DNA of 38,555 nucleotides. It comes from Burkholderiaceae bacterium. GTDB taxonomy: Bacteria; Pseudomonadota; Gammaproteobacteria; Burkholderiales; Burkholderiaceae_C. Made by a program: the position numbers and the translations under genes. Numbering within the stretch: position 1 is the stretch's first letter; every line of letters starts with the position of its first letter. The notes beneath the pieces were generated by a model. The model was not told the origin of the DNA, made no database searches, and worked only from the letters and a program-made list of their open reading frames with translations. The stretch lies in NCBI GenBank assembly GCA_024710165.1, contig JANJVG010000011.1, forward strand, positions 1 through 38,555, in the 5' to 3' direction. Positions 28,533 through 38,551 of the stretch are shown piece after piece.

Positions 28533-29348
28533 ATGCCTGAGTTGCCAGAGGTGGAGGTGACGCGCCGCAGTTTTGTGGATGCCATTTCGGGTGCGCGCGT
28601 CCTGATGGTGCAATTGGGCAAAACCTTGCGTTGGCCGCTGGGCTGTGAGCCGGCGATACTCGCCGATCGTGTGGTCACCGGGGTTCGAAGGCGCGGCAAG
28701 TACCTGTTGCTCGATCTGGACAAGGGTATGCTTCTGTTGCATCTGGGAATGTCCGGCAGCCTGCGTTTCACGCCAGCCCCCGAGCCCATGGGTCCCCATG
28801 ATCATTTTGACTTGCTGACCTCGGCGGGGGTGTTGCGGCTGAATGATCCCCGTCGCTTTGGTGCAGTGGTTTATGCCGCCAGTCCTTCGGAACCCGTCGT
28901 GCAGCGGCTGCTCGGCAAGTTGGGCATGGAACCGCTTTCTGATGATTTTCATCAGGATGTGTTTGTGACAGGCTTGCGCGCAAGCCGCGCAGCGGTCAAG
29001 CAGGTTCTGCTGAACGGGCGACTCGTGGTCGGGGTCGGCAATATTTATGCTTCGGAGGCCCTTTTTTTGGCGGGCATTCGTCCCACGACGATGGCGGCTC
29101 GAATCGGTCCGGAAAGAGCGAAAAAGCTGTACGAAGCGATTCGTCAGGTGCTTGAGCTGGCAGTGCAGCGAGGAGGAAGCACGCTGCGCAATTTCTCGAG
29201 TGCCGATGGCAGCGTCGGGCACTTTCAGAGCGAAGCGCATGTCTATGGCAGGGAAGGTATTCCTTGTCGTGTTTGTGGCACCGCTGTGCGCATGGTTCGT
29301 CAGGGACAGCGCAGCAGTTTCTTTTGCCCCCGGTGCCAGCGAGCCTGA
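28533..29348 (+). CDS. mutM: Formamidopyrimidine-DNA glycosylase
   Basis: MutM (Fpg) removes 8-oxoguanine and formamidopyrimidines from DNA and cuts the abasic site. The 271-residue product begins MPELPEVE, exposing the catalytic Pro2 and Glu3 after Met removal; Lys56 is in [10 protein letters not shown]. The helix-two-turn-helix region contains [20 protein letters not shown], and the zinc finger CRVC...CPRC closes the protein. With mutY downstream it covers two arms of the GO repair system. Confidence 0.97.
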
Positions 29349-29674
29349 TGTGTCCAGGCGTTGCAAACTGGCAATTCAACACCAGCCCCTGAGCTTCGCG
29401 ATGCTATATTTTGGCTATGTGTGTGCGTGCCAGTTCATCAAACCGTTTGATGGGTGTTGACCGCGTTGTACTCTTTGCCAAACCGCATGAAATCGATTGT
29501 TGATGACATCCATGACATCCATGACGTTCATCTCGGGAGCGAGGGGGGTGTGCACGAGTCGGTGTCGCGTTCGCGGTTTCAGTCCACAGGGATATCGCGC
29601 TTTGGCTGGCACCCTGATCAGGGTATCGGCGGCTGCCATCAACTGCCGGTGTCGGGCTGAATTCCGGAATCAAC
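29349..29674. other. 326-base gap between mutM and the dynamin-like gene
   Basis: No convincing gene: open frames on both strands are short and without recognisable sequence. It holds a nine-base tandem repeat at 29503-29529. The dynamin-like frame is open only from 29618, after a TGA at 29615-29617. Confidence 0.5.
29503..29529 (+). repeat. Three-copy nine-base tandem repeat
   Basis: ATGACATCC occurs twice in a row, followed by a diverged third unit ATGACGTTC. It lies 146 bases before the dynamin-like gene. Confidence 0.75.
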
Positions 29675-31639
29675 GTGGGACCATCATTCAATAAGCAATT
29701 TGAGTACCACAGTGCGTGGAGGCGTGAGTTCGCCAGGCAACTCAAGCAGTTGGGCGAGTGGATGACCATCCACGAACTGATGGATGCTGCTGTCCAGGAG
29801 GGATTGCAGCGTCTGGAGGGCCAGGTTCGCTCGGACAAGGTGATGGTCGCGTTCGTTGCCGAGTTTTCGCGCGGCAAGTCAGAGCTCATCAACGCCATTT
29901 TCTTTGCAGACTATGGTCGGCGTATCATGCCTGCGAGTGCAGGTCGTACCACCATGTGCCCTACTGAACTGGGTTACGATGCCGCGGTCCCCCATTGCTT
30001 GCGCTTGTTGCCCATCGAAACCCGGCTTCAGAAGCAGAGTCTTGCTGAATGGCGGCTGAGACCCGAACACTGGGTGGAGACTTCTCTGGATGTTGGCGAC
30101 GCCGGCCAGATCGCCAAGTGCCTGGAAAAAGTTGCCCAAGTGCGGCGTGTCAGCGTGGATGATGCCCGAGCCATGGGTTTCTGGCACGATGACCTGCCAG
30201 ACGACAATCCTTCTCAGGATGCGCAGGGTTTGGTAGAGGTGCCCATGTGGCGACACGCACTGATCAATCTGCCGCACCCCTTGCTCAAGCAGGGCTTGGT
30301 CATTCTGGATACCCCGGGCCTGAATGCCGTGGGCGCCGAGCCGGAGTTGACGGTCAGCCTGATTCCCCAGGCGCAGGCCGTTGTGTTCATTCTGGGTGCG
30401 GACACGGGAGTGACGCGTTCGGATCTTTCCATCTGGCGCGAGCATCTTGCATCTACTTCCGAGAGCGCTGAAGCCCGGTTGGTTGTGCTTAACAAAATCG
30501 ACACCCTCTGGGATACCCTGACGTCTCCCCAGCAGATTCAGGCCCAACTGGATCGGCAATGTCAAAGTTCGGCAGAGATGCTAGGTGTCCGGCTGGATCA
30601 GGTGCTACCGGTTTCTGCCCAGAAAGGGTTGGTGGCAAAAATCGCCAGTGACGGCGCACTGCTTGAAGCCAGTGGCCTGCCCATACTTGAAGCAGCCTTG
30701 GCCCGAGGCATCATGGGTCAGCGGCAGACCATACTCCGTTCTGCCATTCGCTCGGGTATCTCAGGTTTGCGCGGGGATACCTTGCGCCTACTCAACATTC
30801 GGCGCAGAGATCTGGACGATCAGATGCTGGAACTGCGGAGTCTGCGTGGCAAGAACGCTGCAGTCATCGGGGCCATGCGCACCCGGATTGAGCAGGAGCA
30901 GCGTGAGTTTGATCTGAGTGCAAGCAAAATTCAGGCGGTTAGAGCAGTGCATCTGAAATTGTTGCGTGATGTGTTTCAGCAATTGGGCACGCAAGCACTG
31001 AAACAGCAGATGTCTCATCTTGTGGGTGCATTGCAGCAAAAGGGGCTCAAACTGGGCGTGCGCAAGCAATACGCAGAGGCATTCAAGGGCATCAAGTCGA
31101 CGCTGGATAAGGTCCAGGCCTCTGCGACCGAGATTCATGCCATGCTTGATGGAAGTTTCCGGCAATTGAATGCCGATTTCGGTTTCTCACTTCAGGTGCC
31201 GGAGGTGCCCAGCCTGGAGTCCTTCGCGCTTGATCTCGACCGTATTCAGCAAGGGCACCTGCAATACCTTGGCCTCGGTCATTCGCTCAAGCTTGTTCAG
31301 CCAGAGTTTGCCGAGCGGTTGGTCCGGGCGCTTGGCATGCGCCTGCGCGCAGTTTTTGAATCTGCTGCCAATGATCTTGAGCTCTGGAGTAAATCAGCGA
31401 CGGCGCAGCTTGATGCGCAATTGCGGGAGCGTAAGAGAGGCTTTTCACGTCGAATCGAGGCAGTGGACCGCATTCAGCAGGCGGCCAGCGGCCTGGAAGA
31501 TCGCATCGCGGAAATTGAGGATGGCGAACTGGCGTTGAAGCGACTGGATCATCGTCTTCAGCAGCTGACAGATCAGATGACGCTTCTTGTCGAAAAGGCA
31601 GTGGATGTCGAGTTTCCAGGTGAGTTTGCGCTCGCATGA
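29675..31639 (+). CDS. Dynamin-like GTPase
   Basis: A 654-residue protein with a dynamin-type GTPase domain. G1 is AEFSRGKSELIN (62-73; the first glycine of the P-loop is Ala), G2 is in GRTTMCP (90-96), G3 is DTPG (212-215) and G4 is NKID (273-276). A long helical region with coiled-coil character follows (about 370-480 and 560-650). No clear membrane-spanning segment is visible. Bacterial dynamins remodel membranes or, as with E. coli CrfC, act near replication forks. I take GTG 29675 as the start because no ATG precedes the GTPase domain in frame after the stop at 29615. The stop overlaps the mutY start (ATGA), so the two are translationally coupled. Confidence 0.85.
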   Translation: MGPSFNKQFEYHSAWRREFARQLKQLGEWMTIHELMDAAVQEGLQRLEGQVRSDKVMVAFVAEFSRGKSELINAIFFADYGRRIMPASAGRTTMCPTELGYDAAVPHCLRLLPIETRLQKQSLAEWRLRPEHWVETSLDVGDAGQIAKCLEKVAQVRRVSVDDARAMGFWHDDLPDDNPSQDAQGLVEVPMWRHALINLPHPLLKQGLVILDTPGLNAVGAEPELTVSLIPQAQAVVFILGADTGVTRSDLSIWREHLASTSESAEARLVVLNKIDTLWDTLTSPQQIQAQLDRQCQSSAEMLGVRLDQVLPVSAQKGLVAKIASDGALLEASGLPILEAALARGIMGQRQTILRSAIRSGISGLRGDTLRLLNIRRRDLDDQMLELRSLRGKNAAVIGAMRTRIEQEQREFDLSASKIQAVRAVHLKLLRDVFQQLGTQALKQQMSHLVGALQQKGLKLGVRKQYAEAFKGIKSTLDKVQASATEIHAMLDGSFRQLNADFGFSLQVPEVPSLESFALDLDRIQQGHLQYLGLGHSLKLVQPEFAERLVRALGMRLRAVFESAANDLELWSKSATAQLDAQLRERKRGFSRRIEAVDRIQQAASGLEDRIAEIEDGELALKRLDHRLQQLTDQMTLLVEKAVDVEFPGEFALA

Positions 31640-32691
31640 CAGAGTTTGAAAGCTCGGTGGCTGAAAGGGTGATGCAATGGCAGCGACTGCACGGGCGCAG
31701 CCATCTGCCATGGCAGCAGACCCAGGATCCCTACAGGGTCTGGCTCTCCGAGATCATGCTGCAGCAGACACAGGTGGCGACGGTTGTTGGCTACTATGGG
31801 CGCTTTCTGGAGCGTTTCCCAGATGTGGCGTCGCTTGCCAGGGCTTCTCAAGATGAGGTTCTCGCTTTGTGGAGCGGACTGGGATATTACAGCCGGGCAC
31901 GCAATCTTCATCGGTGTGCGCAGCAGGTCGTTGCCGAGCATGCAGGCTCTTTTCCCTCATCAGCACCCTTGCTAGCCACGTTGCCGGGTATCGGTCGGTC
32001 AACGGCGGGCGCCATTGCCGCTTTTTGTTTTGCGGAGCGTGTGCCAATCCTTGATGCGAACGTGCGCCGTGTCCTGACGCGAACCCTGGGGTTCGACAAG
32101 GATCTTGCTCTAGCGGCCAATGAACGTAAGCTGTGGGAACTCGCCTATGAACTCTTGCCGAGGGAGGACCTGCAACAGGCCATGCCGCGCTACACCCAAG
32201 GCATGATGGACTTGGGCGCCATGATCTGCCTCGCGCGCAGGCCGTTGTGTGGGCAATGCCCGTTGCAAGCCTGCTGCATGGCTTTGCAGCAGGGCAATCC
32301 AGAGAACTACCCAGTCAGAACACGCAAGCTTTTACGAAAATCAGAATCATGGTGGATGCTGATTTTGCGCGATCCGCTGGGTCGTGTGTGGCTGCAGCGA
32401 CGCGCATCCAAGGGGATCTGGGCGGGACTGCATTCGCCTCCCGTTTTCATGCAGCGCCAAGCGTTGCTCGATAGCATGCCCCCTGAATTATCAGTATCAG
32501 GCATGGTCGAAATGCCCGCTTTTCTTCATGTGCTGACTCACCGCGATCTGCATTTGCATGCTGTGCAGGTGAATGTGAACCGAGGGGCTGTGTTTGCAGT
32601 CGAGGAGGGCGGTGGCTGGTTTGGGCGAGATAGGTGGCAAACTTTGGGCCTTCCGGCCCCGGTTCGTAAACTTCTTGAAGACGTGGCTTGA
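31636..32691 (+). CDS. mutY: A/G-specific adenine glycosylase
   Basis: MutY removes adenine mispaired with 8-oxoguanine. The 351-residue product has the glycosylase core with WLSEIMLQQTQV (about 36-47), the helix-hairpin-helix LPGIGRSTAGAIAAF (about 116-130) followed by the catalytic Asp in ILDANVRR, and a [4Fe-4S] cluster from C-x6-C-x2-C-x5-C in CLARRPLCGQCPLQACC. The C-terminal MutT-like domain (about 230-345) checks the 8-oxoG strand. Its ATG overlaps the dynamin-like gene stop. It ends six bases from the convergent rapZ. Confidence 0.97.
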   Translation: MTEFESSVAERVMQWQRLHGRSHLPWQQTQDPYRVWLSEIMLQQTQVATVVGYYGRFLERFPDVASLARASQDEVLALWSGLGYYSRARNLHRCAQQVVAEHAGSFPSSAPLLATLPGIGRSTAGAIAAFCFAERVPILDANVRRVLTRTLGFDKDLALAANERKLWELAYELLPREDLQQAMPRYTQGMMDLGAMICLARRPLCGQCPLQACCMALQQGNPENYPVRTRKLLRKSESWWMLILRDPLGRVWLQRRASKGIWAGLHSPPVFMQRQALLDSMPPELSVSGMVEMPAFLHVLTHRDLHLHAVQVNVNRGAVFAVEEGGGWFGRDRWQTLGLPAPVRKLLEDVA

Positions 32692-37465: not shown

Positions 37466-38551
37466 CTAGTGTCCTGAGTTAGAAATTCGCAGACAAAATC
37501 TTTCGACACTTGCAAGGATATCCTCGGCAGACTTGGCCCAGACGAATGGTTTTGGGTTGGCGTTGTAGAGTTCGAGGTATTCGCGGATTGATTTTTCTAG
37601 TTGCCTTGTTGATCTGTGCGTACCTCGGCGGATGTACTTCTGAGTCAATGTGGCGAACCAGCGCTCGACCTGGTTCAGCCAGGATGCAGAGGTGGGCGTG
37701 AAGTGCACGTGAAACCTGGGGTGTCGGGCGAACCATGCTTTGATGCAGGCGGTCTTGTGCGTGCCGTAGTTGTCCATCACCAGATGTACGTCCAAGTCAG
37801 CAGGCACGTTGGCTTCGATGGTGCGCAGGAATTGCAAGAACTCCGTACTGCGATGACGCCTGTGCAACTGCCCAATCACCTCGCCCGTGGCAATGTCCAG
37901 CGCCGCAAACAGCGTTGTTGTGCCATGGCGCATGTAGTCGTGGGTTCGGCGCTCGGGGATGCCCGGTGCCAGCGGCAAAATCGGCTGAGTGCGATCCAAT
38001 GCCTGAATCTGGCTCTTTTCATCCACGCACAACACCATCGCCTTGAGCGGCGGATCAAGGTACAGGCCCACGATGTCACGTACCTTCTCGACGAACAGTG
38101 GATCGCTGGAGAGTTTGAATGTCTCCTGGCGGTGAGGCTGCAAGCCGAAAGCCCGCCAGATCCGGCTTACAGCCGTCTGTGAAACATCCATGGCACGCGC
38201 CATACTGCGGGTACTCCAGTGCGTGGCGCCAGCGGGCACGGCCTCCAGCGTCTTGGCGATGACAGCATCGACTCGGGCATCGTCGATCGTACGCGGTGCA
38301 CCAGGACGCGGCGCGTCAAAAAGACCGTCCAGCCGCAGATCGACAAACCGAGCGCGCCACTTCGAAACCGTCTGCTGCGTGACTCGCTCACGCGCTGCCA
38401 CTACTTTGTTATCCCAACCTTCGGCACAGGCCAGTACGATGCGTGCTCGCAACGCCAGGGATTGCGCTGTCTTGCGCCGCTTGGTCAGTGCGATCAGTTG
38501 TTCGCGCTCCGTCGCACTCAACACCAATGGAGTCTTTGGTCTTCCGCTCAT
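37466..38551 (-). CDS. IS630-family transposase
   Basis: A 361-residue transposase. N-terminal helix-turn-helix domains (about 12-140, with [13 protein letters not shown] and [14 protein letters not shown]) bind the element ends, and a DDE catalytic domain follows: D177 ([11 protein letters not shown]), D260 ([10 protein letters not shown]) and E296 ([10 protein letters not shown]). This is full length for single-frame IS630 members, so it appears intact. The TAG stop is at the inferred element boundary. Confidence 0.95.

What the first reader, a model, noticed from the sequence alone, without database searches (positions are those of the whole stretch)
29675..31639. Dynamin-like GTPase coupled to mutY and flanked by mutM
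The gene lies between the two GO-system glycosylases and its stop overlaps the mutY start. E. coli CrfC, another bacterial dynamin, associates with replication forks and the nucleoid. A dynamin with a role in oxidative DNA damage or nucleoid organisation is a reasonable but untested idea. The P-loop's first glycine is Ala.
Basis: partly seen in the sequence, partly recalled or inferred. Interest (0 to 1): 0.6.

Follow-up and report, generated by a model that had tools for sequence, protein, structure and literature searches.

The report
mutM-linked bacterial dynamin GTPase
Next to a gene for repairing oxidised DNA sits a gene for an uncharacterised dynamin-type GTPase; surveyed relatives show that this pairing is old and specific, while a sister version of the same GTPase sits beside a membrane-protein gene, but what either does is untested.

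Summary
The gene at 29675-31639 is real: an intact 654-aa dynamin-like GTPase between mutM (28533-29348) and mutY (31636-32691), with a 4-base ATGA overlap into mutY. The window is Comamonadaceae by its nearest named relatives. The P-loop alanine is a family trait, not decay (74 of 74 mutM-branch proteins; G3- and G4-like motifs in 179 of 179 checked). Among 179 fetched loci there are two branches. In the window's branch, 70 of 73 fetched loci lie next to mutM and the other three have mutM 6-12 kb upstream on the same strand; mutM-linked members, a few outside this branch included, span 29 family-level groups. In the sister branch, 85 of 94 lie just 3' of yggT (proC-yggT-(yggU)-dynamin) and none beside mutM. 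The mutY link is secondary (5 family-level groups). A conserved extended -10-like motif suggests that dynamin-mutY has its own promoter in Comamonadaceae. The model resembles BDLP and mitofusin; similarity to CrfC is confined to the G domain. Nothing found shows a DNA-repair function. Best reading: a solitary BDLP-type mechano-GTPase at the inner membrane, perhaps within oxidative-stress physiology; a nucleoid or repair role is possible but rests on gene order alone.

The parts
28533..29348 (+). mutM (fpg), formamidopyrimidine-DNA glycosylase; the conserved partner gene
   Evidence: NCBIfam TIGR00577 E 7.7e-78, above cut-off; Pfam
29402..29412 (+). TGCTATATTTT, putative extended -10 promoter element of the dynamin (TATATT at 29405-29410)
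   Evidence: within 2 mismatches in 78 of 92 distinct spacers (87 of 105 with duplicates) vs 17 of 1840 (24 of 2100) mononucleotide shuffles. The generic promoter scan does not report it
29413..29674 (+). leader, about 218 bp longer than in close relatives
   Evidence: motif to start 262 here vs 44 in L002 and L060; no full second copy in the genome, only a 39-base 82% match; no Rfam hit at gathering scores
29675..31639 (+). dynamin-like GTPase, 654 aa, GTG start; G1 AEFSRGKS 62-69, G3 DTPG 212-215, G4 NKID 273-276; predicted helical stalk 335-644
31636..32691 (+). mutY, A/G-specific adenine glycosylase, overlapping the dynamin stop by 4 bases
   Evidence: NCBIfam TIGR01084 E 1.4e-97, above cut-off; sequence

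Best explanation
It is a solitary BDLP-type bacterial dynamin of the 'mutM branch' of a two-branch family found here in the class that holds the window (GTDB sense, Burkholderiales included). Shown by computation: an intact G domain with a family-specific alanine P-loop, a predicted long helical stalk, old adjacency to mutM, and a sister branch beside yggT. Inferred: it binds and hydrolyses GTP, self-assembles through its stalk, and works as a mechanochemical or tethering enzyme at the cytoplasmic face of the inner membrane. Its expression overlaps that of the GO glycosylases because both serve growth under oxidative stress: MutM and MutY clear oxidised bases, and the dynamin maintains the membrane, or the membrane-nucleoid contact. 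In this family it is expressed mainly from its own promoter together with mutY. A direct part in base excision is not proposed.
For: Fold: the AF2 model (33 sequences, mean pLDDT 76.8, pTM 0.50) matches BDLP first by Foldseek (E 2.6e-14, TM 0.37) and mitofusins first by VIA-align (Z 17.8, 354 aligned, rmsd 6.5). DTPG- and NKxD-like motifs in 179 of 179. Branches: mutM beside 70 of 73 loci of the window's branch, yggT beside 85 of 94 of the other, no overlap (Pfam identity of sample neighbours). The mutM link survives changes of outer neighbours: 16 loci have a GldG-like gene (PF09822) upstream, and ferredoxin-like and CTP_transf_like (coaD by my reading) genes follow in about 30 loci. It is the only dynamin found in the genome: the other two PF00350 matches are Era (over its own NCBIfam cut-off) and, by my reading, an MnmE-like GTPase. 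YggT is an integral membrane family (general knowledge), which points the sister branch at the membrane.
Against: No membrane-binding tip was recognised: no stretch stands out in hydropathy or helical moment across 27 proteins, and the highest 19-residue hydropathy, 1.43, lies in the G domain. Most bacterial dynamins exist as operon pairs (PMC6104087, passages), and this one has no partner dynamin. Gene order is the only evidence for a link with oxidative damage. 104 of 200 order genomes have no match (E 0.001) while 197 of 200 have mutM, so mutM works without it. The frame carries three stops in one incomplete genome, G029. The model is of moderate confidence and long-helix matches can be inflated (note).
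Confidence: 0.4

Rival explanations
1. Nucleoid or DNA-repair role: the GTPase organises or tethers the chromosome, or recruits MutM/MutY to damaged DNA, in the manner proposed for E. coli CrfC.
For: Old and specific linkage to mutM, in five family-level groups also to mutY. CrfC is a dynamin-like protein reported to bind the sliding clamp (PMC6374313, passages). The sister branch sits beside yggT, and the related YlmG affects nucleoid distribution in chloroplasts and cyanobacteria (PMC2923531, passages).
Against: Only the G domain resembles CrfC (24%, E 4e-05). No clamp motif like CrfC QLALP near the N-terminus; the only loose hits are QGHLQYL at 526 and QMTLL at 634. Pfam shows no DNA-binding domain at E 0.001. 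A 2026 paper places YlmG1 in the chloroplast envelope with a role in preprotein translocation (PMC13399175, title and start of abstract in the listing).
Confidence: 0.2
2. Gene-order inertia: the dynamin is an unrelated housekeeping or membrane gene kept next to mutM because this block rarely rearranges.
For: lolB and the TPR gene upstream of mutM are also conserved in many order-level loci. A conserved promoter-like element separates the dynamin from mutM in Comamonadaceae.
Against: mutM-dynamin adjacency also holds where the upstream genes differ (16 loci with a GldG-like gene) and in 7 of 11 loci outside the two main branches; in f178 the pair is split by about 6-12 kb yet keeps strand and order.
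Confidence: 0.25
3. Signalling GTPase: like RdcA it senses GTP level and regulates a partner enzyme, without membrane work.
For: RdcA (=CrfC/YjdA) is a soluble dynamin-like GTPase that activates the diguanylate cyclase DgcE (PMC6510439, passages). No membrane tip was recognised here.
Against: No RdcB relative found in the window's genome (without a positive control). No cyclase among the nine sample neighbours identified by Pfam; most neighbour clusters were not identified.
Confidence: 0.13

Closest known systems
BDLP and mitofusin-type dynamins (BDLP 2j69/2j68, mitofusin 1/2, Cj-DLP1/2 5owv/5oxf, IniA 6j72, SynDLP 7zw6)
   Same: N-terminal helix, G domain, long helical stalk returning to the neck (model)
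   Different: About 12-20% identity in the structural alignments; alanine at the first P-loop position; solitary gene; no recognised paddle
E. coli CrfC / YjdA / RdcA
   Same: Dynamin-like G domain; no membrane segment recognised in either (CrfC: PMC6374313 and PMC6510439, passages)
   Different: 24% identity over the G domain only; CrfC has Gly in the P-loop and an N-terminal clamp motif; no RdcB relative found here
LeoA / LeoBC dynamins (PADLOC models)
   Same: Best PADLOC match LeoBC, E 1.3e-08; LeoA 8.1e-04
   Different: Beside mutM, no paired dynamin; neighbours were not screened for defence genes
yggT-linked sister branch of the same family (this work)
   Same: Similar length and motifs, about 30-39% identity to the window protein
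   Different: 85 of 94 just 3' of yggT, 0 of 94 beside mutM; P-loop mostly AxxxxGKT (66 of 88 read)

Membership tests
Bacterial dynamin-like protein (dynamin superfamily) | Dynamin_N domain with G1, G3 and G4 motifs | tested here: met
   Pfam E 1.9e-14; DTPG- and NKxD-like patterns in 179 of 179. G1 is AxxxxGK(S/T): the first Gly is replaced in 74 of 74 of the mutM branch
Bacterial dynamin-like protein (dynamin superfamily) | Large G domain plus long helical stalk | tested here: met
   AF2 model and Foldseek/VIA matches; moderate confidence (pTM 0.50)
Bacterial dynamin-like protein (dynamin superfamily) | Lipid-binding tip | tested here: inconclusive
   No hydrophobic or amphipathic peak at the tip; sequence alone cannot exclude it
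Bacterial dynamin-like protein (dynamin superfamily) | GTP hydrolysis, oligomerisation, membrane remodelling | not testable with these tools
   needs protein
Operon-paired bacterial dynamins (Cj-DLP1/2, LeoA-BC and the like) | Second dynamin beside it | tested here: not met
   No other dynamin in the draft genome (94% complete): the other PF00350 matches are Era and an MnmE-like GTPase on other contigs
CrfC/RdcA | Sequence relationship beyond the G domain | tested here: not met
   The significant BLASTP alignment covers residues 55-329 only, 24%
CrfC/RdcA | N-terminal clamp-binding motif (QLALP type) | tested here: not met
   Pattern scan finds no such motif in the N-terminal part; motif from PMC6374313
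CrfC/RdcA | RdcB partner | tested here: inconclusive
   No match in the own genome, no positive control

The most novel reading that the evidence does not exclude
A dynamin family with two ancient branches couples chromosome care to the inner membrane: the mutM branch serves repair of oxidised DNA (a dynamin partner of the GO system), and the yggT branch serves nucleoid or envelope organisation. The mutM branch would be the first dynamin known to me (recall) to act with base-excision repair.
Probability: 0.12. Interest if true: 0.85.

Novelty: new variant of a known kind. Interest (0 to 1): 0.5.

Why it matters
Functions of bacterial dynamins are known in few cases. A family with two mutually exclusive, conserved gene partners (mutM or yggT) gives direct, testable leads, and 19 of 91 order genomes with fetched loci carry both versions, so they can be compared in one cell. 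If the mutM branch matters for oxidative damage, a mechano-GTPase would join a well-studied repair pathway.

Tried and rejected
A mutM-dynamin gene fusion, suggested by long open frames (977-1097 aa in family f10; 1017 in G302), was rejected: by the coordinates, mutM and dynamin are in different frames in L140, L141, L142 and L143.

Decay of the P-loop was rejected: the alanine is conserved. A defence-island reading was not supported: the PADLOC match is weak, though neighbours were not screened. PHROGs gave nothing useful. Rfam found two tRNAs only. The long leader is not a repeated element of this genome. The generic promoter scan did not report the extended -10 site, and its promoter count is not above shuffles (1 found, mean 1.9). 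In 69 spacers of the window's branch, only 9 come within 1 mismatch of TGNTATAAT, four of them Comamonadaceae, so the promoter claim is for Comamonadaceae only. An inner stop first noted in G290 lies at the very C-terminus (623 aa read to the first stop) and is no sign of decay; I had read it as such and withdraw it.

Paper searches that turned up no report of a mutM-, mutY- or yggT-linked dynamin: (open PMC library only; capped listings of up to 20; titles and starts of abstracts seen).

Limits: the tree is FastTree with long branches and an unknown root. Dropped before the counts: L145 (wrong stretch), L309 (508 aa, left out of the tree), fragmentary or weak matches, and one full-length match, G319:C1:837505, not fetched; one search shows mutM just upstream of it. 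Six sister-branch proteins gave no P-loop to the pattern, their rows beginning late. The 31 loci were picked by me, mostly with the motif, so that column profile is biased. The 105 spacers hold duplicates from two searches; one search gives the figure for 92 distinct ones. Loci are related, so counts are not independent. Neighbour genes come from simple ORF clustering, not gene calling. The phylum search found members only inside the class (24 of 249), but the number of sampled genomes outside it is not printed. Thirteen order genomes have no mutY match at E 1e-30; none of them appears with a mutM-linked dynamin, but they are related and this was not tested further.

Full report
What is there. 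The ORF 29675-31639 is intact and starts at a GTG that is the only start listed for its frame near the match. It is a dynamin-family protein (Pfam Dynamin_N 1.9e-14). MutM precedes it and MutY follows with an ATGA overlap. No other dynamin was found in the 3.83-Mb draft genome: the two further PF00350 matches are Era and an MnmE-like GTPase. The best named relative is Simplicispira lacusdiani, 82%.

Synteny among close relatives. Of 80 named loci, the best 80 of 577 found, 79 have mutM immediately upstream and 79 have mutY immediately downstream, both in 78. The exceptions are L111, Verminephrobacter, where no mutM was found in the 8 kb held upstream, and L114, a contig end. The exact ATGA overlap occurs in 49 of 80; of the other 30 with mutY, 27 have a possible mutY start overlapping or within 30 bases of the dynamin stop, and 3 lie further off. 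The mutM stop to dynamin start gap, from match ends, is about 39-339 bp, median 105, n=79; it is 326 bp in the window.

Synteny beyond. Searches found the family in 35 of 40 near relatives, 96 of 200 order genomes, 65 of 232 class genomes (E 0.001; the own genome counted in each), and 24 of 249 phylum genomes at E 1e-40, all 24 within the class. I fetched 180 stretches and used 179. mutM lies within 3 kb upstream on the same strand in 77 of 179, 76 of them within 437 bp; mutY follows in 15. On the tree (178 loci plus the window), the branch holding the window has 73 other rows, 70 of them beside mutM; in the other three, all of group f178, mutM lies about 6-12 kb upstream on the same strand. 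A branch of 94 rows has no mutM neighbour; 85 have yggT within 1.5 kb upstream, 85 proC within 3 kb, 50 yggU within 1 kb. Of the remaining 11 rows, 7 have mutM. The linked label needs 5 changes on the tree against a shuffled mean of 58; near-relatives inflate this contrast. By gene neighbours, 91 order genomes with fetched loci divide into 48 mutM type only, 19 mutM and yggT types, 18 yggT type only, 3 mutM plus another, and 3 another only (members without either neighbour, such as those of f178, count as 'another' here). mutM types occur in 29 family-level groups; mutM plus mutY in five (f1, f8, f10, f172, f184).

Which linkage is the core one? mutM. mutY is present in only part of the order-level loci. 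In f8, two genomes without a match to the dynamin have mutM and mutY directly adjacent (G343, G404), so the gene between them can be absent. In L111 and in G634 (L335, 1.5-kb flank only) dynamin-mutY is seen without mutM next to it. The upstream neighbour of mutM varies (TPR/lolB or a GldG-like gene), as does what follows the dynamin (mutY, or convergent ferredoxin-like and CTP_transf_like genes), while mutM-dynamin stays.

Expression. A motif TGCTATATTTT sits in the mutM-dynamin spacer of 47 of 105 Comamonadaceae loci exactly and of 87 of 105 with up to 2 mismatches, against 24 of 2100 mononucleotide shuffles. Duplicates removed, it is 42 exact and 78 of 92 within 2 mismatches, against 17 of 1840. 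It reads as an extended -10 element (label from general knowledge), mostly 17-60 bases before the start codon. In 31 loci that I selected, the flanks are far less conserved than the motif. Hence dynamin-mutY probably has its own promoter in this family; the generic scan does not report the site. In the window about 218 extra bases lie between this motif and the start; they are not repeated in the genome beyond one 39-base 82% match.

Protein. The P-loop alanine is present in 74 of 74 of the mutM branch; in the sister branch 83 of 88 readable P-loops also have alanine and 5 have glycine. G3- and G4-like motifs are present in all 179. The model has an N-terminal helix, a G domain and long stalk helices (335-436, 462-502, 543-644), closest to BDLP by Foldseek and to mitofusins by VIA-align; parts of the G domain are modelled at low confidence. 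No obvious lipid-binding tip was seen.

Interpretation. Identity as a dynamin and the two-branch gene-order pattern are well supported. Function is inferred. The membrane reading rests on the fold and on the yggT neighbour of the sister branch; it is weakened by the absence of a visible paddle and of a partner dynamin. I therefore put 0.4 on the membrane reading, 0.25 on gene-order inertia, 0.2 on a nucleoid or repair role and 0.13 on signalling.

Noticed in passing
L140-L319, yggT-branch loci such as L306, L262, L299: A sister dynamin branch lies just 3' of proC-yggT-(yggU) in 85 of 94 loci; a metX-like or Rng-like gene (labels from reading the protein) follows in some.
   Followed up: partly
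window 29413-29674: Leader between the putative -10 and the dynamin start is about 218 bp longer than in close relatives and is not a repeat of this genome.
   Followed up: partly
window 37466-38551: IS630-family transposase at the window edge, near tRNA-Met and hrcA.
   Followed up: no
G029:C142:2226-3881: A dynamin match with three inner stops in a small, 68% complete genome suggests loss in some lineages.
   Followed up: no
L185, L193, L212, L256, L265 and others: ABC-2 permease, GldG-like (PF09822) and DUF4340 genes precede mutM-dynamin in 13-16 loci.
   Followed up: partly
L320 9136-12239 (E. coli MG1655): RefSeq now names b4109 (CrfC/YjdA) rdcA and b4110 (YjcZ) rdcB, regulators of a diguanylate cyclase.
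   Followed up: yes
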